From an uncultured Isoptericola sp. (lineage in GTDB: Bacteria > Actinomycetota > Actinomycetes > Actinomycetales > Cellulomonadaceae): 64,000 bases of DNA. Every line of letters starts with the position of its first letter. Positions within the stretch are counted from its first letter, which is position 1. Shown here piece after piece: positions 8,333 to 55,554 of the stretch. Under the pieces are notes generated by a model. It did no database searches. It was not told where the DNA came from and was given only the letters and a program-made list of their open reading frames with translations. The stretch is from the NCBI GenBank assembly GCA_947497265.1, contig CANMFP010000014.1, positions 1-64,000 of the forward strand. The letters are read 5' to 3'. The position numbers were made by a program, and so were the translations under genes.

Positions 8333-9256
8333 TCAGTGCAGGCCCTTGGCGAAGAAGTGCTCGGCGTAGGGGTTGTCGTTGTAGCGCTCGATCTCCCGGT
8401 AGCCCGCCCGGCGGTACATCCCGACGGCCTCGGTGAGGGACCCGTGCGTGTCGAGGCGCACGGCGCTGTGGCCCAGGTCGCGCGCGACGCCTTCCAGGTG
8501 CCGCAGCAGCCGCGACCCGAGGCCGGCGCCACGCCATCCCGGGTGCACCCACATGCGCTTGATCTCGCCGACGCCACCGCCGAGCGGTTGGACCCCGCCG
8601 CAGGCGGCGGGCACCCCGTCGCAGGCGGCGACCATGAAGGCGCCGTCGGGTCGCCGCAGCCGCTCCGTGCCCGCGGTGAGGTCCCCGACCGCGAACCCGC
8701 GGGGGAACCGTTCGTCGAGCTCGGCGACGTAGGACCGGACCGCAGCGAGCGCCGCGGCGCCCGCCGGGTCGACCTCCTCGATCCGCACGGTCGCCGCACG
8801 GACCAGGAGGTCGGCCTCCGCGAGCGCGGCGGCCAGCCGGGCCCGCTGGCGGCCGGTCAGGGGCGCGACCAGGTTCTCCGCGCGCTCGGCCGAGCGTCGT
8901 TCGAGCTCGGCCCACGCCCGCCGCCCCGCGGGGGTGAGCTCGACGCGACGACGACGACGGTCGTCCGGGTCGGGCCCGACGACCACCAGCGCGTCCGCCT
9001 CCAGCCGCCGCAGCAGGCGGCTCAGGTAGCCGGAGTCCAGGTGGAGGCGAGCCCGCAGGTCGCGCGTCGTGCCGGCCTCCGCACCGATCTCGTAGAGGAG
9101 CCGTGCCGTCCCGAGCGGCATGCCGAGGCCCAGGAAGGACTCTTCCAGCACACCGATGCGCTGGGTATAGCTGCGGTTGAAGCGGCGGACGACCTCGACG
9201 TGGTCGGGCAGGTCCGGCTGCTCGACGGCGGCGGGCGACGGACGCGGAGTTGCCAT
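8333..9256 (-). CDS. MarR-type regulator fused to GNAT acetyltransferase
   Basis: This 307-aa protein joins two domains. Residues 1-150 form a MarR winged helix (TTRDLRARLHLDSGYLSRLL recognition region near 60, the wing DPDDRRRRRVELTPAGR near 97). Residues 155-307 form a GNAT domain with the acetyl-CoA loop HPGWRGAGLGSRLL near 255 and NDNPYAEHFFAKGL at the end. Such fusions probably bind DNA and acetylate a small molecule or protein, but targets are unknown. I chose the ATG at 9256. A CTCTGA-N6-TCAGAG dyad lies just upstream, consistent with autoregulation and possible control of divergent valS. Confidence 0.88.
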   Translation of the reverse strand: MATPRPSPAAVEQPDLPDHVEVVRRFNRSYTQRIGVLEESFLGLGMPLGTARLLYEIGAEAGTTRDLRARLHLDSGYLSRLLRRLEADALVVVGPDPDDRRRRRVELTPAGRRAWAELERRSAERAENLVAPLTGRQRARLAAALAEADLLVRAATVRIEEVDPAGAAALAAVRSYVAELDERFPRGFAVGDLTAGTERLRRPDGAFMVAACDGVPAACGGVQPLGGGVGEIKRMWVHPGWRGAGLGSRLLRHLEGVARDLGHSAVRLDTHGSLTEAVGMYRRAGYREIERYNDNPYAEHFFAKGLH

Positions 9257-46539: not shown

Positions 46540-49230
46540 TCAGCCTGCCGGGACGGTCCCGCTGCACTCGAGCGCCTGTTCGGGCGGCGGCGCCCCGTTG
46601 CCGATGAACCCGACCGTGGCGGACTGGTCGGGACCGAGGTCCGCGTTCCACGACTCCGGCGTGACCACCCCGTCGGCGAGACGGCCGCCCCACACGTTCG
46701 ACGTCGTCAGGCCGCCGGGGGCCACGACCTGCCAGCCCTGGACGCCGTCGGCGCCGCCGGTGACCGTGATGGCACCCTGGTACCCGCCGGACCAGGAGTT
46801 CGCGGTGGAGTACTCGGCGGTGCACGCACCGGCCGGTGGCTCGACCTCTCCCTCCCCCGTCGTCACCGTGACGGCGTCGGACTCCTGAGACACGTTGCCC
46901 GCGGCGTCGTGCGCGGTGACCGTGTAGGCGTACTCGGTCGATTCCTCCAGACCGGTGTCGGTGAACGACGTCGTGCTGCCACCGACGCTGTCGACGACCT
47001 CGCCGTCGCGGCTGACGTCGTACCCGGTCACGCGCACGTCGTCGGTCGACGCCGTCCACGCGAGCTCCACCGTGGTGCCGGCGGCCGTCGCCGTCAGGTC
47101 CTGCGGCGCCGTCGGGGCCTCGGTGTCCTCGGGCGGCTCGACGTCGTCGCCGAAGAGCCGGTCGTAGTCCGCGAGCGCCGTCGCCACCGCCGTCTGGGCC
47201 CAGAACCGGTGGTAGGTGAACTCGGGCTCCGGCCCGCCGTCCAGGTGGTCCTGGACCTTGTCCCACTCGGGGTCGTCGCGCAGGAAGGAACGGATGTCGA
47301 TGAACGACACGCCGGGCTCGATGACGTCGCCGTTCGGCATGGTGCCGCTCCAGCCCTCGGGCACGTAGATGCCGTCGCCATCGGGCTCGGTCAGCGCGTC
47401 GTCGAACCGGCCGTAGTCGCCGCGCGCCTCGGTGGTGGCCACGCCCATCGGGTCGGAGCTCTGCGTCCAGATGGCGTCGAGCAGGTCGTGGGAGACCTGC
47501 TGCGCCTGGGTGTCCCCGGACGCGGCGGCGTAGTACATCAGCGTGCGGGCGAGCGCGCCGGCGACGCCGACGTCCTGCCCGTATCCGGTGACCTCGACGC
47601 TGAGCCCGGAGTTGTCTCCCGGGTTCGCCGCGTCCCAGGTGTCGGGCTGCCCGCTCCAGGCGATGTTGGACGGGATCTGCCAGTCGTCCTCGGTGACCGT
47701 GATGTGGGAGATCACCCACGGCACCCAGGCGTCCAGGATGTCCTTGGCCCGGTCGTCACCGGTCTCGTGGTACAGCTGCGCGATCCGCTCCACGCCCCAG
47801 CCCTGCATGCCGAACCACTCGTTCGACGGCGGGTCGTGGTAGACGGGTGCCTCGTCGTAGGCCATGCCGTAGAACGTCGACATCCCGGCCGGCCGTTCGG
47901 CGTAGGCGCCGTCCCAGCTGTTCGTGGCGCCTCCCGCGATGCCGCCCTCGGGGGACTGGAGCCACTGGAAGAGCTCGACCTGGCGGTCGAGGCTCTCGGA
48001 CCAGTCGTCGTCGGCGGTGGCGGACTCGGGCACCAGGTCCGGGTCGTTGGCCAGCGCCCAGGCCGCCATCGGGTTCTGGTAGCCGAAGTGCGCGTGCGAG
48101 GAGCCGATGCGCCACGCCCACGGAGCCTGCTCGTCGAGGGCGCCGCCCCAGGCGTAGTACCAGCTCAGCAGGTAGTGGGCGCTGTCACGACCGGTGCCGG
48201 CGGGGCACGACGGCGAGTCGCAGCCCGGCGTCTTGAAGTACTTGTCGAACAGCGAGTACCGCAGGTAGTCGCCCATCTTGGCGGCCTTGGCCACGGTCCC
48301 GGCGACGGCCTCCGGCTGGCCCTGCTCGGTGGCGAACTTGTTGGCCCAGTAGGCCGCTTCGACGGCTCGGGCGTCGGCGTCGGGGGCGTTGGTGTACTTC
48401 CACTGCGTCGCCGGCTGCGGGTCGGCCGTGAACAGGTCGACGTAGCCGTACTCACCACCGAACGAGAAGTCGTCGATCGCGGGCTGCGGGATCGTCTCCC
48501 ACACGGACTCCTCGGGCCCGCGCTGGAAGGTGTTGATGTAGCTGGTGCCCTCGTGGTCCGGCCCGAGCAGCTCGCTCGACCCGGGCGCGGCACCGTAGCC
48601 GTACACGTTGTCGACGTCCGCGAGCCAGTGCATGCCGTAGATCTCGTCGGTGCCGTAGGTCTGGGACAGCTCACCGGCCAGCGGGTCGCTGCCGACCGCG
48701 ACATCGCTGTCGAGCTCGGAGGGGTAGCCGCTGGGGTGGTTGTGCTCGGCGGCATAGGTGGCCGGGCTGCCGGGATCGTAGGCGCTGTTGGTGGGCTGGT
48801 TCTCCGAGGTGGGGATCATGTACGCCTCGAGGGTGTCCCAGGCGTGGTTGAACGGCTCCCAGTCCCCGGTCACCTGGCCGTAGGACGTCTCCAGCCAGAG
48901 CCAGAACGAGTACGCCTCGCTCGTGGTCTCGTGGCCGTTGTCCGGGGCCTCGACCATCAGCGACTCGACCGAGTGGTACGGGATCCCCTGGTCGGAGAAG
49001 TAGCCGTTCGCGGGGTCGTGGACCTTGTCGTACAGCTCCAGGAACCGCTGGGTGTACTCGCCGTCGGTGTCGAGCTCGCCGAGCGCCGTGGCGACGGGGG
49101 CCGCGGCGACGTCGGCGGTGCCGGACCCGGGCGGCGCAGCGCCGGCGGGGACGGCCGCGACCAGGGCGGCGAGCGTGGCTGACGCCGCGGCTCCTGCCAG
49201 CAGCCTGGTGCGGATGGATGCGCGATGCAT
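46540..49230 (-). CDS. GH48 processive cellulase with FN3 and CBM2
   Basis: This 896-aa secreted enzyme is the cellulose-degrading exocellulase that typically partners GH6 enzymes. A signal peptide (residues 1-32, ending AGA) leads to the GH48 domain, about 45-695; the general acid Glu is in HETTSEAYS. One FN3 module spans about 705-795 and the CBM2 about 803-896 with its two Cys. It attacks cellulose from chain ends. The ATG follows GAGAGGTGCACC. Upstream on the minus strand are box B (49275-49288) and box A (49298-49310). Confidence 0.96.
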   Translation of the reverse strand: MHRASIRTRLLAGAAASATLAALVAAVPAGAAPPGSGTADVAAAPVATALGELDTDGEYTQRFLELYDKVHDPANGYFSDQGIPYHSVESLMVEAPDNGHETTSEAYSFWLWLETSYGQVTGDWEPFNHAWDTLEAYMIPTSENQPTNSAYDPGSPATYAAEHNHPSGYPSELDSDVAVGSDPLAGELSQTYGTDEIYGMHWLADVDNVYGYGAAPGSSELLGPDHEGTSYINTFQRGPEESVWETIPQPAIDDFSFGGEYGYVDLFTADPQPATQWKYTNAPDADARAVEAAYWANKFATEQGQPEAVAGTVAKAAKMGDYLRYSLFDKYFKTPGCDSPSCPAGTGRDSAHYLLSWYYAWGGALDEQAPWAWRIGSSHAHFGYQNPMAAWALANDPDLVPESATADDDWSESLDRQVELFQWLQSPEGGIAGGATNSWDGAYAERPAGMSTFYGMAYDEAPVYHDPPSNEWFGMQGWGVERIAQLYHETGDDRAKDILDAWVPWVISHITVTEDDWQIPSNIAWSGQPDTWDAANPGDNSGLSVEVTGYGQDVGVAGALARTLMYYAAASGDTQAQQVSHDLLDAIWTQSSDPMGVATTEARGDYGRFDDALTEPDGDGIYVPEGWSGTMPNGDVIEPGVSFIDIRSFLRDDPEWDKVQDHLDGGPEPEFTYHRFWAQTAVATALADYDRLFGDDVEPPEDTEAPTAPQDLTATAAGTTVELAWTASTDDVRVTGYDVSRDGEVVDSVGGSTTSFTDTGLEESTEYAYTVTAHDAAGNVSQESDAVTVTTGEGEVEPPAGACTAEYSTANSWSGGYQGAITVTGGADGVQGWQVVAPGGLTTSNVWGGRLADGVVTPESWNADLGPDQSATVGFIGNGAPPPEQALECSGTVPAG

Positions 49231-49274
49231 GGTGCACCTCTCTTCGTTGAGCGGACACCCTGACGATCGGCGCA

Positions 49275-49288
49275 TGGAAGCGTTCCCA
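49275..49288. promoter_or_regulatory. Box B operator upstream of GH48
   Basis: TGGAAGCGTTCCCA differs at two positions from TGGGAGCGCTCCCA, the site known for CelR of Thermobifida and CebR of Streptomyces. It lies 45 bp upstream of the GH48 start. LacI-family binding is inferred. Confidence 0.7.
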
Positions 49289-49297
49289 CAACACGGC

Positions 49298-49310
49298 GAA
49301 ACGTTTAGGG
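49298..49310 (-). promoter_or_regulatory. Box A upstream of GH48
   Basis: Read on the minus strand this is CCCTAAACGTTTC, with the AAACGTTT palindrome core typical of LacI-family sites. It is identical to sites at 53125 and 57187. It is separated from box B by 9 bp. Confidence 0.7.
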
Positions 49311-49339
49311 CCACGCCCCGGAAAGGCGGTGGCTCAGCG

Positions 49340-52006
49340 TCAGGCGTGGACGTCGACCGACGCCTCCCATCGCAGCACGCCGACGTCCCGGCCCAGCTCC
49401 GCCGTGACGCGATCCAGGACGTCCGCCGCCGTCAGGTGCCCGTCGCTCGGCTCGGTCGTGGCGACCCGCCGCACGTGGGCACCAGGGTCGAGCGCCGCGG
49501 AGAGCCGCGCCGCACGGTGCTGTGCCGACCGGTCGTCCTGCCCGTCCAGCAGCACGGCGATGCCCGAGATCCCGACGGCGGTGGCGCAGTCGTCCTCGTC
49601 GATCTCCCCCCGCAGGCGGCGCAGGACGGCGCGGGTCGGCGGCCCGGGCAGCGACACGGCCAGCACCTGCCACGCGTACGCGGGCAGCCGCCGGCGCCGA
49701 CGGATCGCCCGCTCCAGCCGGTCGACGAACAGCTCGTGCGCGACGAGGCCGGTCTCCCGGTCCACGAAGGGCCGGTCGACGGGGACCGACAGCTGCGACG
49801 TCGCCTGCCCGACCAGGGCCATCGACCCGACCAGCCGGGCGGGTCGGTCGCCGGCGTCGTGCACCGTCACCGCCCGGCACCGGACCCTCAGGTACGTGCC
49901 GTCGGCGTGCCGGATGCGGTGCTCCACGTCCAGCGGCTCCCGCGTGCCGGAGAGCTGCGCGGCGACGGCGGCGTGCACGCGCCGCACGTCCTCCGGGTGC
50001 ACCCGGGAGAACCACTCGCGCGGGTCGTCGGCGAGCGAGCTCCGGTCCTGCCCCACCGTCCTGGCCCACACCTCCGAGTAGCGCACGGTCCCGGCGTCGA
50101 CGTCCCAGTCCCACGTGCCGTCGTCGGAGGCGATCGAGACCAGCGCAGAACGCTCCTCGACCTCCGCGACGTCGTGCGCCAGCGCCCGTTCGCGCTCCGC
50201 CTCCTCGACCAGCCGACGGCGCTGGTCCAGCAGGGAGGCCAGCGACTCCTCCGCCTCGAGCGCCACGGCGAGCATCGCGGCCCAGTGGTTGTAGCGGGCG
50301 CGGGTGCTGGTCGCCCGCGAGTCGACGAGCCCGCCGACGGCCAGGAAGCCCCGGTCGCTGCGGCCGAACGCGACCGGCACGACCACGGTGAGCGACCGCG
50401 GGTCCGTGAGGGCCGGCGGCGGGAACTCCTGCGAGGGCATCGTACGGCCCACGAGGTTCTCCCCCGCGCCGCCCCGTGCGCCGACGATGCGGAGCACCCG
50501 CTCGCCGGGCCGCGCCGGGTCGTCCTCCCACAGGGCGAGCGCCGCCGTCGACGTCCGCCCCCGGGGCATCCAGTCCAGCCGGCGCAACGACTCGCCGTCG
50601 GCGCGCATCAGCTCGAGGTCGACGAGGTTCTGGTCGACGAGGTCCTGCTCGAGCCGTCCGGCGCGCGCCAGGTCGCCGTGGGCGCAACCCCGGGCGAGGG
50701 CGACGACGATCTGGCAGAGCGCCTCCTCGACGGCGTCGGCCGCATCGGACTCGAGCCCGGCGACCACGACCGGGCCGTCGCCGCGCGCCTCGGCCGCGAC
50801 GGCACGGTCGGCGAGCCGCTCGCGCACCCGTACGCTCTCGAGGCGCAACGCCGGGACGAGCTGTTCGAGCGCACCGGGACCGGGCCGCAGGGTCGCCGTG
50901 CGGTCCCCGAGCGCGCGCAGCGCGGTGGCCGGCGGTTGCTGGGCGGTCGCGACGCTCGCCTCGACGAGCTGGCGCACCATCGTGAGCCAGGCCTCGGTCG
51001 CCCCGGGGTTGCGCACGCCGTCGGCGCGCGCGAACACCACTCGGGCCACCGTGCCGAGCGGGTCCGGGTCGCAGGCCGGCGTGCTGCCCTGTACCACCAC
51101 GGTGCTGCGGGTCCCGCGCGCACAGCCACAGGACTCGCGCATCACCAGGGCCGAGACGTCCAGCCGGTGCGTACCGCTGACGCGCTCTCCGCGTGCCCGC
51201 GCCAGCACGAGCTCGGCGGCCAGCTCGCCGACCGTGTCGTGCATGGGGTCCACCGACGACAACCGAGGCCAGGTGCGGGCACCCACGTCCGAGTTGTCGA
51301 ACCCGACGACGGCCTGGACGGAGGGGGCGTCGAGCCCGGACAGGTGCAGCCCGCGCAGGAACCCGACCGCGTTGCGGTCGGTGGCCGCGACGGTCGCCGT
51401 CGTGGCCATGCCCTGCTCGGCCAGCCGGCGAGCGACCGCCTCCGCCGCGGCCTCCTGGTTGTCGCGGGTCCGGTAGACGTGCTCGGGCGCGTGGTCCAGG
51501 CCGTGCGCCGCGAGCGCGTCGCGGAACGCGTCGTAACGTTCGGCGATGTCTCGCTGGTCGGTGCTCCCGAGGAACCCGATGCTGCGGTGGCCGTGCTCGA
51601 CCAGGTGGTCGACGGCGGCCCGGACCCCACCGACGTTGTCCGGAGACACCGCGGGCGCCCGGAGGTCGTCGGGCGGCACACCGAGCGTCACGACCGGGAT
51701 GCCCGTCGCGTCGAGGCGCCGCAGCTCCGCGTCGGCGAGCGCCGTCGTGACCACGACGAGCCCGTCGTAGGCGCTCAGGCCCGGTGCGGTGCGACGGTAG
51801 GGCGGTACGGGGAACTCGTCGCGGTCGATGTCGGCCGGATAGGTCTGGACCGCGACGAGCCGGTGCCCCTCGGAGCGCAGCACGCGGGCCATCCCGGCGA
51901 GCATCCGTCCGAAGTAGTAGCCGCCCACGACCGGGCACAGCACACCGATCGTCAACGTCTTGCCTGGTCCTCTGCCTGCCTGTGTCCACATCGACACCTG
52001 CACCAC
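49340..52006 (-). CDS. LacI-like sensor fused to PAS and degenerate GGDEF
   Basis: This 888-aa protein has no HTH. Residues 16-290 are a LacI/periplasmic-binding-like sugar-sensing domain (TIGVLCPVVGGYYFG, HGHRSIGFLGST near 140, DPMHDTVGELAAELV near 253), ending in RESCGC. A GAF-like region (about 450-585), a coiled coil (about 590-625), a PAS fold (about 625-735) and a GGDEF-like domain (about 745-870, DRETGLVAHELFVDRLERA) follow. The GGDEF signature is GISGI, so diguanylate cyclase activity is unlikely. No signal peptide or membrane segment is seen. It is divergent from the LacI regulator and lies between GH48 and GH6. Confidence 0.72.
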   Translation of the reverse strand: MVQVSMWTQAGRGPGKTLTIGVLCPVVGGYYFGRMLAGMARVLRSEGHRLVAVQTYPADIDRDEFPVPPYRRTAPGLSAYDGLVVVTTALADAELRRLDATGIPVVTLGVPPDDLRAPAVSPDNVGGVRAAVDHLVEHGHRSIGFLGSTDQRDIAERYDAFRDALAAHGLDHAPEHVYRTRDNQEAAAEAVARRLAEQGMATTATVAATDRNAVGFLRGLHLSGLDAPSVQAVVGFDNSDVGARTWPRLSSVDPMHDTVGELAAELVLARARGERVSGTHRLDVSALVMRESCGCARGTRSTVVVQGSTPACDPDPLGTVARVVFARADGVRNPGATEAWLTMVRQLVEASVATAQQPPATALRALGDRTATLRPGPGALEQLVPALRLESVRVRERLADRAVAAEARGDGPVVVAGLESDAADAVEEALCQIVVALARGCAHGDLARAGRLEQDLVDQNLVDLELMRADGESLRRLDWMPRGRTSTAALALWEDDPARPGERVLRIVGARGGAGENLVGRTMPSQEFPPPALTDPRSLTVVVPVAFGRSDRGFLAVGGLVDSRATSTRARYNHWAAMLAVALEAEESLASLLDQRRRLVEEAERERALAHDVAEVEERSALVSIASDDGTWDWDVDAGTVRYSEVWARTVGQDRSSLADDPREWFSRVHPEDVRRVHAAVAAQLSGTREPLDVEHRIRHADGTYLRVRCRAVTVHDAGDRPARLVGSMALVGQATSQLSVPVDRPFVDRETGLVAHELFVDRLERAIRRRRRLPAYAWQVLAVSLPGPPTRAVLRRLRGEIDEDDCATAVGISGIAVLLDGQDDRSAQHRAARLSAALDPGAHVRRVATTEPSDGHLTAADVLDRVTAELGRDVGVLRWEASVDVHA

Positions 52007-52073
52007 CGTCCTCGCAGTCGAGTCCTGCGTGCGTCCCCCGCAGGTGCATCATGCCCTGAAAACCGGCAGAGTG

Positions 52074-52087
52074 TGGAAGCGTGCCCA
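52074..52087. promoter_or_regulatory. Box B-like site at LacI gene start
   Basis: TGGAAGCGTGCCCA differs at three positions from TGGGAGCGCTCCCA. It covers the LacI GTG start codon (52081) and lies 68 bp upstream of the sensor gene. It suits autoregulation of the divergent pair. Confidence 0.55.
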
Positions 52088-53130
52088 GAATCCCCGCCAG
52101 CGGCGGCACGCGTCCGGCCCCTGGACGGCGCGTCACGATCACCGACGTCGCCCGTGCCGCCGGCGTCTCCATCGCCGTGGTGTCCTACGCGCTCAACGGA
52201 CGGCAGGGAGTGTCCGAGAGCACCCGTCGCCACGTGCTCAAGGTGGCCGACGACCTCGACTGGCGTCCCAGTGCCGCTGCCCGGTCGATGCGGTCCGGGG
52301 CGGTGGCGAGCGTCGGGCTCCAGGTCCTCGACGGCGTCGGCGTGTCCCACAGCCGCTCGGCGGGGCTCGACCTCGCCGGCGGCCTGCGTGGGGTGCTCGA
52401 CACCGTCGCGCTCTCCGTCGAGGTCGCGGCGGACCGCACGGCGGGCGCCACGGACCTCGAGCGGGCCTGGAGCGAGCGGCGGCACACCGCGTTCGTCGTC
52501 CAGGACCTGCTGCTGGACGACCCGCGCACCCGCGCCGCGGCCCGGGTCGGCGCGCAGGTGGTGGGCGTCACGCCGTCCGGCCTGGGGACCGCCGGGGTGG
52601 AGCGCGGCGTGTGGTTCGACGGTGACGCGGAGGCCGCCGTCGGGCGCTACCTCGTGGACCTGGGCCACCGGCACCTCGTGCTGCTGGTCACGGAGGCCGA
52701 CAGGGACGTGGCCCGCGCTCTGCACGCGGGCCTGCTGGCGGCCACCGCCGGTCTCGTGGCGACGGTGGACGTGGTCGAGGCGGGGTCGGCACCGGCGGCC
52801 GGTGCCGCGGCCGCACGTCTCCTCGCGGACGAGCAGCGGCCGACGGCGGTGGTCACCGACGGCGACGTGACGGCGCTGGCGGTGCTGGAGGCCGCGCGGC
52901 ACCGCGGGCTGGAGGTGCCCTGGGACGTCTCCGTGGTCTCCGGCGCGGACGCCGACACCTGCCGCCTCGTGGACCCGCAGCTCACCGCGATCGCCCGTCC
53001 GTGGCAGGACCTCGCCGCAGCCGTGGCGTCGGCGCTGCGGATCGCCCCGCAGACGCCTGCCGAGGTGCCGGCCGCACGCCTGGTGATCCGTGGCACGACG
53101 GCTCCGCCGTCGGTCCCCGGGATCCCCTAA
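52081..53130 (+). CDS. LacI-family transcriptional regulator
   Basis: This 349-aa regulator has a LacI HTH at residues 17-70 (TITDVARAAGVSIAVVSYALNGRQGVSESTRRHVLKVADDLDWRPSAAARSMRSG, hinge helix included) and a periplasmic-binding-like sensor (about 75-345). The sensor is divergent, with a run of Ala/Arg-rich segments, but GDVTALAVLEAARHRGLEVPWDVSVVSGADAD near 260 is typical. It is likely the local repressor of the cellulase genes and releases DNA on binding a cello-oligosaccharide. The start GTG is within a box B-like site and the stop TAA within box A of GH6. Confidence 0.88.
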   Translation: MPRIPASGGTRPAPGRRVTITDVARAAGVSIAVVSYALNGRQGVSESTRRHVLKVADDLDWRPSAAARSMRSGAVASVGLQVLDGVGVSHSRSAGLDLAGGLRGVLDTVALSVEVAADRTAGATDLERAWSERRHTAFVVQDLLLDDPRTRAAARVGAQVVGVTPSGLGTAGVERGVWFDGDAEAAVGRYLVDLGHRHLVLLVTEADRDVARALHAGLLAATAGLVATVDVVEAGSAPAAGAAAARLLADEQRPTAVVTDGDVTALAVLEAARHRGLEVPWDVSVVSGADADTCRLVDPQLTAIARPWQDLAAAVASALRIAPQTPAEVPAARLVIRGTTAPPSVPGIP

Positions 53131-53137: not shown

Positions 53138-53149
53138 ACCAGGTGCGCG

Positions 53150-53163
53150 TGGGAGCGCAACCA
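53150..53163 (+). promoter_or_regulatory. Box B upstream of GH6
   Basis: TGGGAGCGCAACCA differs from TGGGAGCGCTCCCA at two positions. It lies 78 bp before the GH6 start. A GCACGGGC/GCCCGTGC hairpin at 53198-53219 follows in the leader. Confidence 0.65.
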
Positions 53164-53241
53164 GGACACGTTGGGGACGTCGGGCCGACAGCCCGGCGCA
53201 CGGGCGACGACGCCCGTGCTCCCGAACTCCTGGAGGATCCC

Positions 53242-55554
53242 GTGCGATCACGATCCTTGCGGCCCCGCAACGTCGCGGTGACCAGGCCCGTCGCCGTGGC
53301 GGCGACGCTGGCCCTGGCCGCCGTCCCCCTCGTGGGGGCCACGACCACCGCCTCGGCGGCGGAGCGGGTCGACAACCCGTTCGTCGGCGCCGACCAGTAC
53401 GTGAACTCCTACTGGTCCGAGAACGTCGTCGACGCGGCCGCGGAAGCCGGCGGCGACCTCGGCCAAGACATGCTCGCCGTCGCCGACACGCCCACCTCCG
53501 TGTGGATGGACCGCACCACGGCCATCGCGGGCAACGAGGACGGTCCCGGCCTGCGCCACCACCTCGACGCCGCGCTGGAGCAGCAGCAGGGCGACACCCC
53601 CCTGGTGTTCAACCTGGTGATCTACAACCTGCCGGGTCGCGACTGCTTCGCGCTCGCGTCCCAGGGGCTGGTCCCGGCCACGCCGGAAGGCATGGAGCAC
53701 TACAAGACCGAGTACGTCGACGTCATCGCCGACATGCTCGCCGAACCGCAGTACGCCGACCTGCGTGTCGTGGCGACCATCGAGCCGGACTCCCTGCCGA
53801 ACCTCGTCACCAACACCTCCGAACCCGCCTGCCAGACGGCGGCGCCGTACTACCGCGAGGGCGTCGCCTACACCCTCGACCGGCTGTACGAGGCCGGGAA
53901 CGTGTACTCCTACATCGACGCCGCCCACGCGGGCTGGCTCGGCTGGGAGTCGAACGCCGGACCGGCCGCCCAGGTGTTCGCCGAGGTCGTGGAGTCCACG
54001 GAGCACGGCTACGACACCGTCACCGGGTTCGTCACCAACACGGCGAACTCGACGCCGTTGCGCGAGCCGTTCCTCGACGACGTGAACTTCACCAGCGGCA
54101 CGTTCGTGCGCCAGGCGGACTTCTACGAGTGGAACACGGACTTCGACGAGCTCGACTGGACGGAGCACCTCTACGACGAGGTGACCGCCGCCGGGTTCCC
54201 CTCCGACATCGGCATGCTCATCGACACGTCCCGCAACGGCTGGGGCGGCCCCGACCGGCCCACCGCCGAGAGCACCTCGACGGACCTCGACACCTACGTC
54301 GACGAGTCGCGGGCCGACCGCCGCAACCACCGCGGCGCCTGGTGCAACCCGGACGGCGCCGGCCTCGGCGAGCGCCCGACGGTCAGCCCGACCGACAACG
54401 CCGGTTCGCACCTGCACGCCTATGTGTGGGTCAAGCCCCCGGGCGAGTCGGACGGCAACTCCGAGCCGGTCGACAACGACCAGGGCAAGGGCTTCGACCG
54501 GATGTGCGACCCGACCTACTCGGAGCAGGACCGCCTCGGCGGGAACCTCACGGGCGCCCTGCCGAACGCCCCGGTGGCGGGCCAGTGGTTCCAGGACCAG
54601 TTCGAGATGCTGGTGGCGAACGCGTACCCGCCGATCGACGGCGGCACCGTCGACCCCGACACCGAGGCGCCGACGGCGCCCGGCAACGTCGAGGCCACGG
54701 GCACCACGAGCACGTCGGTCGACCTGTCCTGGGACGCCTCGAGCGACGACACCGGTGTGACGCGGTACACGGTCCTCGTCGACGGTGAGACGGCCGGGAC
54801 GAGCGCGACGACGTCGCACACCCTCACCGGGCTGACGCCGTCGTCCACCTACGAGGTGACCGTCACCGCGCGCGACGCGGCCGGCAACACCTCGGCCGCG
54901 TCCGCACCTGTCACGGTGACGACCGACGAGGCCACGGGTGGCGAGGACACGCAGGCACCCACCGTGCCGACCGGCCTCGCCGCGGGCGACGTGACGTCGT
55001 CGTCGGTGGAGCTCACCTGGGACGCCGCCAGCGACGACACGGGCGTGGCCGGCTACCTGGTGCACCGCGACGGCGACGAGGTCGCCGACGTGTCGGGAAC
55101 CTCCGCCACGGACTCCGGCCTCGATGCGGGCACCGCGTACTCCTACACGGTGACCGCGTACGACGCGGCCGGCAACACCTCGGCGGCCTCGACGGCCCTG
55201 TCGGTGACCACCGAGGAGGGTGGGACCACCCCGGCCGGCGACTGCACCGTCGACTACTCGGTGAACTCCTGGAACTCCGGGTTCACCGGGTCCTTCGTGG
55301 TGACGAACGACTCCGACGCCGCGATCGACGGCTGGGAGCTCACGTTCACCTTCGCCGACGGCCAGACCATCGACCAGATCTGGTCCGCACAGGCCTCGCA
55401 GAGCGGGTCCGCGGTGACGATCACGCCGGCGGCGTGGTCGACGACGATCGCGGCCGGCGGGTCGGTGACGTTCGGCTTCAACGGGTCGCACTCCGGCACC
55501 AACACGGCACCGGACGACTTCGCCCTCGACGGCGTGGCCTGCGACATCGCCTGA
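53242..55554 (+). CDS. GH6 exo-cellobiohydrolase with two FN3 and CBM2
   Basis: This 770-aa secreted cellulase acts from non-reducing ends, complementing GH48. The signal peptide ends around TASA/AERV near residue 40. The GH6 domain (about 45-475) has the general acid Asp in TIEPDSLPNLV near 188 and the HAGWLGW motif near 232. Two FN3 modules (about 480-565, 575-660) precede the CBM2 (about 668-770). The domain order is that of Cellulomonas CbhA-type enzymes. GTG follows GGAGGATCCC. Hairpins follow the stop, before GH10. Confidence 0.95.
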   Translation: MRSRSLRPRNVAVTRPVAVAATLALAAVPLVGATTTASAAERVDNPFVGADQYVNSYWSENVVDAAAEAGGDLGQDMLAVADTPTSVWMDRTTAIAGNEDGPGLRHHLDAALEQQQGDTPLVFNLVIYNLPGRDCFALASQGLVPATPEGMEHYKTEYVDVIADMLAEPQYADLRVVATIEPDSLPNLVTNTSEPACQTAAPYYREGVAYTLDRLYEAGNVYSYIDAAHAGWLGWESNAGPAAQVFAEVVESTEHGYDTVTGFVTNTANSTPLREPFLDDVNFTSGTFVRQADFYEWNTDFDELDWTEHLYDEVTAAGFPSDIGMLIDTSRNGWGGPDRPTAESTSTDLDTYVDESRADRRNHRGAWCNPDGAGLGERPTVSPTDNAGSHLHAYVWVKPPGESDGNSEPVDNDQGKGFDRMCDPTYSEQDRLGGNLTGALPNAPVAGQWFQDQFEMLVANAYPPIDGGTVDPDTEAPTAPGNVEATGTTSTSVDLSWDASSDDTGVTRYTVLVDGETAGTSATTSHTLTGLTPSSTYEVTVTARDAAGNTSAASAPVTVTTDEATGGEDTQAPTVPTGLAAGDVTSSSVELTWDAASDDTGVAGYLVHRDGDEVADVSGTSATDSGLDAGTAYSYTVTAYDAAGNTSAASTALSVTTEEGGTTPAGDCTVDYSVNSWNSGFTGSFVVTNDSDAAIDGWELTFTFADGQTIDQIWSAQASQSGSAVTITPAAWSTTIAAGGSVTFGFNGSHSGTNTAPDDFALDGVACDIA

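What the first reader, a model, noticed from the sequence alone, without database searches (positions are those of the whole stretch)
49340..52006. HTH-less LacI-like sensor fused to GAF-like, PAS and degenerate GGDEF domains in a cellulase cluster
The protein carries a LacI-type sugar-binding domain without any DNA-binding HTH, ending in RESCGC, then a GAF-like region, coiled coil, PAS and a GGDEF-like domain whose signature is GISGI. It sits divergent to a classic LacI regulator and is flanked by GH48 and GH6. It looks like a cytoplasmic carbohydrate sensor that signals through a catalytically dead output domain, perhaps by protein contact or c-di-GMP binding, and could modulate the neighbouring LacI. 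LacI-like sensor domains linked to GGDEF or kinase outputs are known from other bacteria, but this combination in a cellulase locus is, to my knowledge, not described.
Basis: partly seen in the sequence, partly recalled or inferred. Interest (0 to 1): 0.85.

Follow-up and report, generated by a model that had tools for sequence, protein, structure and literature searches.

The report
Split LacI-type sensor–repressor cellulase switch
In cellulose-degrading soil bacteria related to Cellulomonas, the repressor encoded beside a key cellulase gene seems to have lost its sugar-binding pocket, while a neighbouring DNA-binding-free relative keeps a near-perfectly conserved one, suggesting that one protein senses the sugar and the other grips the DNA.

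Summary
The 888-aa protein (49340-52006, minus; 'SENS' below) is an HTH-less LacI/PBP domain ending in RESCGC, an alpha/beta region of unsettled fold, a long helix, PAS, and a domain with GGDEF fold but no GGDEF active site. It lies divergent to a LacI regulator, between GH48 and GH6. It is the sensor gene of a conserved SENS-LacI-GH6 module: of 221 genomes of the host family 90 have SENS, 90 this GH6, 88 both, 129 neither; the four exceptions sit at contig ends. The four relatives examined outside the module are long GGDEF-EAL proteins. In the module the GGDEF domain is degenerate in 43 of 56 sequences and absent in 13 (about five losses), so it is unlikely to be the essential output. The neighbouring LacI is not 'classic': seven effector-contact positions are near-invariant in SENS but more variable than average in the partner LacI. 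Asp at LacI position 274: SENS 33/33, partners 0/33, LacI controls 16/16, 16/16 and 25/28. Best explanation: a two-protein LacI switch, SENS reading a cello-oligosaccharide and signalling by contact to a repressor that no longer reads sugar itself. Contact, ligand and regulation are untested. New variant of a known kind.

The parts
49340..52006 (-). SENS: 888-aa HTH-less LacI-type sensor protein
51122..51961 (-). LacI/PBP sensor domain, residues 16-295; effector-contact positions D123, Q151, D153, R157, N183, T209, D237 near-invariant in 33 sequences
51122..51139 (-). RESCGC motif, residues 290-295; S292, C293, G294, C295 invariant in 35 of 35 aligned relatives, four long paralogues included
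50237..50686 (-). conserved alpha/beta region, residues 441-590 ('GAF-like', fold not established)
50129..50308 (-). long helix (signalling-helix or coiled-coil type), residues 567-626
   Evidence: model
49796..50125 (-). PAS domain, residues 628-737
49367..49777 (-). degenerate GGDEF-fold domain, residues 744-880, GISGI at 812-816, no active site, no I-site
52081..53130 (+). partner LacI regulator: intact LacI HTH; effector pocket decayed (L214 at LacI-197 position, A289 at LacI-274 position), W281
52921..52923 (+). codon of W281: Trp in 33 of 33 partners, in none of the 60 control LacIs
52072..52087 (+). candidate operator TGTGGAAGCGTGCCCA at the LacI start, in the SENS/LacI divergent region
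49275..49290 (-). candidate operator TGTGGGAACGCTTCCA upstream of GH48
53148..53163 (+). candidate operator CGTGGGAGCGCAACCA upstream of GH6
53143..55554 (+). GH6 cellulase with fn3 and CBM2; third gene of the conserved module
46540..49314 (-). GH48 cellulase; beside SENS in 12 fetched loci of the genera of Isoptericola and Cellulosimicrobium and in one of a further genus (L074)

Best explanation
SENS and the divergent LacI protein are the two halves of one sugar-responsive repressor. SENS keeps the LacI-type sugar pocket but has no DNA-binding domain. The partner LacI keeps the DNA-binding domain but its pocket has decayed. When a cello-oligosaccharide binds SENS, its closed PBP domain (and perhaps the helix-PAS part) would touch the partner LacI and change its grip on operators in front of GH6, of the SENS/LacI promoter and, in some genera, of GH48. 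Shown by sequence: conserved module, intact pocket in SENS, decayed pocket in the partner, dead or absent GGDEF. Inferred: physical contact, ligand, direction of the effect, target operators.
For: SENS-LacI-GH6 behaves as an all-or-none module: SENS in 90 genomes, GH6 in 90, both in 88, neither in 129 of 221 (Fisher p about 9e-57, phylogeny not corrected). The four exceptions sit at contig ends with LacI still adjacent, and one of them (G124) shows the start of GH6 there. LacI adjacent and divergent in 86 of 90 by whole-genome search; the other four show it on closer look (one only in pieces). GH6 on the same strand within 3 kb downstream of LacI in 85 of 90. LacI-274 position: Asp in 33/33 SENS, 0/33 partners, 16/16 nearest LacIs of the family without SENS, 16/16 other LacI-like proteins of this genome, and 25 Asp + 3 Glu of 28 nearest LacIs of other families. 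LacI-197 Arg: 33/33, 18/33, 16/16, 15/16, 28/28. Mean entropy over seven pocket positions against the domain mean: SENS 0.03 vs 1.22; partners 2.40 vs 1.77; controls 0.57 vs 1.18 (16), 0.66 vs 1.31 (28), 1.40 vs 2.04 (16). Scan not aimed at the pocket: of 17 positions conserved in both first control sets, partners lost 5, among them LacI-197 and LacI-274. Partner HTH median identity 0.80 against 0.38 for its sensor domain. W281 is Trp in 33/33 partners and in none of 60 controls. Precedent: CcpA, a LacI-family protein, is mainly controlled by a protein, HPr-Ser46-P (PMC3877293, passages seen).
Against: No experiment, no complex prediction. Partners are one clade (SH-aLRT 99-100), so pocket decay and SENS linkage are one evolutionary coincidence, not many. 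Position 274 is a ligand contact that varies in the GntR subfamily too (PMC3877293 Table 2), and 4o5a, the solved LacI most similar to the partner, also lacks Asp there, so loss of this Asp alone does not prove loss of sensing; the partner could bind another ligand. About half of the partners keep Arg197 (18/33) and the Asp149 position (17/33, 9 gapped). The seven pocket positions were chosen by me after D274 and R197 had been looked at. Candidate operators at GH6 and GH48 were found only in the window and four close relatives; family-wide the LacI-start site has no recurring match before GH6 (crude: some sites were picked wrongly; mean control fraction 0.63), the pattern is not enriched in the whole genome (15 sites against 18 for the reversed control), and its CelR-like form may belong to another LacI (one copy precedes a GH1-like gene).
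Confidence: 0.48

Rival explanations
1. The partner LacI is an ordinary one-component repressor re-specialised for a different effector, and SENS is a second, independent sensor. The two are neighbours only because both serve cellulose use.
For: LacI-274 also varies in the GntR subfamily and in 4o5a; 18 of 33 partners keep Arg197 and 17 of 33 the Asp149 position.
Against: No replacement residue is conserved at the pocket positions in the partners (S7, A6, E6, T5, G4, R3 and others at 274); pocket positions vary more than the domain average, which looks like relaxed constraint rather than a new specificity; the pair was not found apart where the contigs allow a look.
Confidence: 0.25
2. SENS signals through c-di-GMP or another nucleotide: the degenerate GGDEF domain (or the alpha/beta and PAS parts) is a receptor and the LacI domain tunes it, as in FimX-type proteins.
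For: Four of four long relatives examined carry intact GGDEF and EAL behind the same front half; RxxD I-site kept in 22 of 43 degenerate members; 2 of 43 keep the first metal-binding Asp. A degenerate GGDEF that senses GTP is known from FimX (PMC8846402, passages).
Against: 13 of 56 members have no GGDEF-fold domain, lost about five times; the I-site is lost in the window protein and in 21 of 43; the C-terminus is the least conserved part compared (median identity 0.28 against 0.52-0.56 for three other parts).
Confidence: 0.12
3. SENS acts on a different target (for example a sigma factor, kinase or transporter) and its gene is merely co-regulated with LacI and GH6.
For: No direct evidence of SENS-LacI contact; the PAS and alpha/beta parts are about as conserved as the sensor.
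Against: The divergent pairing with this LacI and the loss of the partner's own pocket remain unexplained.
Confidence: 0.12
4. SENS is a dead relic of a c-di-GMP enzyme under no selection.
For: GG(D/E)EF in 0 of 56 short members; EAL model only in the 4 long ones of 35 scanned.
Against: Seven pocket positions nearly invariant in 33 sequences under 85% identity to each other; GH6 of the module in 13 of 25 genera, with the same gene order in 56 of 56 short-form loci fetched.
Confidence: 0.02

Closest known systems
CelR/CebR-type LacI regulators of actinobacterial cellulases (Thermobifida fusca CelR; that solved chain 5ysz is CelR is recalled)
   Same: LacI-type cellobiose-dependent control of cellulases with CelR palindromes (PMC3377646, section 8 read whole).
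   Different: There one protein holds both DNA binding and sensing; here they appear split. In section 8 that paper reports for C. flavigena cellulase sites unlike CelR and names no regulator for them.
CcpA with HPr-Ser46-P
   Same: LacI-family DNA-binding protein switched by a protein partner (PMC3877293, passages).
   Different: HPr is a phosphocarrier (recalled), not a LacI-fold sugar sensor; CcpA still has small-molecule effectors in a secondary role (same passage).
LacI/PBP-sensor GGDEF-EAL proteins (the long paralogues)
   Same: Same front half with RESCGC, alpha/beta region, PAS.
   Different: Intact GGDEF and EAL, 1131-1170 aa in the four examined, not beside the LacI-GH6 pair.
FimX-type degenerate GGDEF receptors
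   Same: Dead GGDEF fold as a regulatory module (PMC8846402, passages).
   Different: No EAL; the domain is missing in 13 of 56 members.
XylFII-LytS (PBP-type sugar sensor handing its signal to a second protein; recalled, no call)
   Same: Sugar-binding PBP fold separate from the output protein.
   Different: Membrane-side sensor and histidine kinase; here a soluble sensor and a LacI repressor.

Membership tests
LacI/GalR transcription factor (SENS) | N-terminal LacI HTH | tested here: not met
   no LacI HTH in the Pfam scan; NCBIfam LacI models match only past their HTH part, and the PBP domain begins near residue 16
LacI/GalR transcription factor (SENS) | LacI-type PBP core with effector residues | tested here: met
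   Peripla_BP_3 8e-30; R157, D237 and D123 33/33
LacI/GalR transcription factor (partner) | LacI HTH | tested here: met
   PF00356 1.2e-13
LacI/GalR transcription factor (partner) | conserved effector-contact residues | tested here: not met
   LacI-274 Asp 0/33, Arg197 18/33, pocket entropy above domain mean
Diguanylate cyclase | GGDEF fold | tested here: met
Diguanylate cyclase | GG(D/E)EF, metal-binding Asp, NxxxGHxxGD | tested here: not met
   all three absent in the window protein; GG(D/E)EF in 0 of 56 short members, first Asp in 2 of the 43 that have the domain; 4 of 4 long ones intact
c-di-GMP receptor of degenerate GGDEF type | I-site RxxD | tested here: not met
   DEDD in the window protein; RxxD in 22 of 43 degenerate relatives
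GAF-domain protein | GAF fold in 441-590 | tested here: inconclusive
   no GAF model among Pfam hits of 37 sequences; model has four strands; region barely covered in the fold comparison; separate fold job not accepted
Protein-controlled LacI repressor (CcpA-like mode) | direct, ligand-dependent protein partner | not testable with these tools
   only linkage and residue patterns available

The most novel reading that the evidence does not exclude
A LacI-family switch split over two proteins: the sugar pocket was handed over from a DNA-binding repressor to a HTH-less LacI-fold protein recruited from a c-di-GMP enzyme, whose enzymatic half then died or was deleted. This would be the dedicated induction device of the GH6 cellulase across Cellulomonas and its relatives.
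Probability: 0.42. Interest if true: 0.85.

Novelty: new variant of a known kind. Interest (0 to 1): 0.68.

Why it matters
LacI is the textbook one-component sensor. A lineage in which constraint has moved from the repressor's pocket to a separate protein would show how a one-component switch becomes a two-protein one, and would give a natural set of 33 and more repressor/sensor pairs for work on allostery. It also offers a concrete, testable candidate for how Cellulomonas-type bacteria induce their GH6 (and partly GH48) cellulases, a step for which the parts of the papers seen here name no regulator (PMC3377646 section 8; PMC3544764 passages).

Tried and rejected
Output by GGDEF catalysis: rejected for the window protein. 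GGDEF-fold domain as the essential output: unlikely, because it is missing in 13 of 56; no displaced remnant within 1.5 kb downstream of these 13 (best E 0.066). Paralogue of the same kind in the own genome: none; the 16 other hits are LacI-like at 28-36%. Short form outside the host family: 394 genomes of the class gave matches at E 1e-40 in 5 genomes outside the family (7 places). None of these 7 places has the GH6, and none the partner LacI beyond one weak fragment that overlaps the SENS-like match, in the flanks held (1.5 kb or less); five lie in frames of 1082-1383 aa, two (653 and 269 aa) are cut by or lie at contig ends, so short forms there are not excluded. Operator conserved before GH6 across the family: not found. 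The pattern was drawn from the window's own sites, so its enrichment (1.53 against 0.016 per kb at up to one mismatch) is partly circular. The C. flavigena sites of PMC3377646 were not searched for here. First control set of own-genome LacIs had three wrong-frame rows of seven; redone with 16. First script for the operator scan failed on a column index, redone. An alignment of a wrong sub-range was not used. VIA-align list: no GAF entry seen among 50 rows, which excludes nothing since PAS and GGDEF fill the list. Rows dropped before counts: L081 (cut by its contig) from the GGDEF count and tree; sequences at 85% identity or more for the 33-sequence sets. Short-subfamily members were picked by hand, whose match list was itself cut off, so 90 is a lower bound.

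Literature: 10 searches returned, in the listings seen, no paper on a HTH-less LacI/PAS/GGDEF protein beside a cellulase or on a LacI repressor paired with a LacI-fold sensor; subscription journals are mostly missing and preprints are not held, so this is no claim that none exists.

Full report

Where it comes from. In the host family, 120 of 221 genomes carry a homologue at E 1e-30 or better. There are two kinds. Long ones (four examined, 1131-1170 aa) have the same front half followed by intact GGDEF and EAL. Short ones, like the window's, have no intact GGDEF: GG(D/E)EF is kept in 0 of 56, the first metal-binding Asp in 2 of the 43 that still have the domain; 13 have no such domain, and EAL models match none of the 31 short ones scanned. 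On a tree of the conserved part the domain was lost about five times, at least three of them forced by well-supported branches. SENS is therefore read as a former c-di-GMP enzyme whose front half has found another use.

The module. I fetched 60 loci. In all 56 short-form loci SENS is divergent to a LacI gene that is followed by a GH6 gene; none of the four long-form loci shows this. GH48 was found beside SENS in 12 loci of the genera of Isoptericola and Cellulosimicrobium and in one locus of another genus (L074). By whole-genome search, short SENS is in 90 genomes and this GH6 in 90; 88 have both and 129 of 221 neither. The four mismatches sit at contig ends with LacI still adjacent; in one of them, G124, the first part of GH6 is there, and in two, G003 and G056, SENS itself lies beyond the contig end and was not seen. 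LacI was adjacent and divergent in 86 of 90 and was found for the other four on closer inspection, once only in pieces. GH6 lies on the same strand within 3 kb downstream of LacI in 85 of 90; of the other five, G171 shows it, G186, G003 and G056, and in G167 GH6 is on another contig than SENS and LacI. Apart from the split G066, only one further LacI scoring 148 bits or more lacked SENS (G080 contig 6), and that protein keeps the classical pocket. In 394 genomes of the class the module was not seen outside the family, within the limits told under Tried and rejected.

The repressor is not classic. I aligned 33 SENS sensor domains (no two at 85% identity or more over the whole protein), their 33 partner LacIs, the 16 nearest LacIs of the family that lack SENS, 16 other LacI-like proteins of the own genome and 28 nearest LacIs from other families of the class. 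At the position of E. coli LacI Asp274 the counts of Asp are SENS 33/33, partners 0/33, controls 16/16, 16/16 and 25/28 (the other three Glu). At Arg197: 33/33, 18/33, 16/16, 15/16, 28/28. At Asp149: 33/33, 17/33 (9 gapped), 16/16, 12/16, 27/28. Over seven contact positions (149, 191, 193, 197, 220, 246, 274) the mean entropy is 0.03 bits in SENS against a domain mean of 1.22, but 2.40 against 1.77 in the partners; the control sets show 0.57 against 1.18, 0.66 against 1.31 and 1.40 against 2.04. A scan not aimed at the pocket found 17 positions conserved in both first control sets; the partners lost five, including the 197 and 274 equivalents. The partners' HTH stays conserved (median identity 0.80) while their sensor domain drifts (0.38). 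So constraint on the sugar pocket is strong in SENS and relaxed in the repressor. Numbering note: 191, 246 and 274 are listed as ligand contacts in Table 2 of PMC3877293 (section 6 part 1 read); that Arg197 contacts inducer and that its replacement weakens binding is stated in PMC4632034 (passages); 149, 193 and 220 are recalled.

How it most likely works. The simplest reading is a LacI switch split over two proteins: SENS senses, LacI binds DNA, and the two communicate by contact. A Trp (W281) stands in 33 of 33 partners where none of 60 controls has one and most have small or polar residues; it is a candidate contact point, by inference. The ligand is probably a cello-oligosaccharide, judged only from the neighbouring GH6, GH48 and GH10 genes. 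In the window, CelR-like palindromes lie before GH48 (49275-49290), at the LacI start between SENS and LacI (52072-52087) and before GH6 (53148-53163); the same three sites recur in four close relatives, and the SENS/LacI site in all 14 GH48-type loci scanned at two mismatches or fewer. Family-wide, no recurring match was found before GH6, and the pattern is not enriched in the whole genome, so target operators remain open.

What speaks against it. The partners form one clade, so the coincidence of pocket decay and SENS is a single event. Position 274 also varies in GntR and is not Asp in 4o5a. A new ligand for the partner LacI is therefore a serious rival. No contact, binding or regulation has been measured.

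Comparison. A LacI-family protein ruled by a protein partner is known (CcpA with HPr-Ser46-P; PMC3877293, passages). PBP-clan domains are said to be prevalent on GGDEF/EAL proteins, and PMC8846402 notes that a Periplas_BP domain like that of LacI may bind sugars (passages). Cellulase control by a one-component LacI protein is known (CelR; PMC3377646, section 8), and the same section reports other, unassigned sites before C. flavigena cellulases. What appears new is the combination: a LacI with a decayed pocket tied to a HTH-less LacI-fold sensor derived from a c-di-GMP enzyme, as a fixed module with GH6.

Noticed in passing
L107 (G009:C1:868100-888000), ORFs near 1792, 5308 and 8799, plus strand: Three SENS-like frames stand in tandem within about 10 kb; the one at 8799 is the long GGDEF-EAL type.
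   Followed up: no
L128 (G080:C6): A LacI without SENS that scores above 148 bits to the partner LacI keeps Asp at the 274 position; a natural comparison for the split.
   Followed up: partly
L145 (G186:C86): A piece of LacI (residues 57-149) lies in a gap of the SENS gene; probably an assembly error.
   Followed up: no
L049 (Cellulosimicrobium funkei U11): The SENS reading frame of 631 aa matches only to about residue 495 of the window protein; sequencing error or real not known.
   Followed up: no
G000:C4:107537-107554 (L129): A near-perfect CelR-like palindrome precedes a gene that looks like a GH1 beta-glucosidase (identified by eye).
   Followed up: partly
52072-52087 and the same place in L052-L111: The LacI start codon lies inside or close to the candidate operator and close behind a -10-like sequence, so the LacI gene may be leaderless (by eye, sequences).
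   Followed up: no
window 51122-51139: SCGC after the LacI domain is invariant in short and long forms alike (35 of 35); two cysteines that might bind a metal or act as a redox switch.
   Followed up: no
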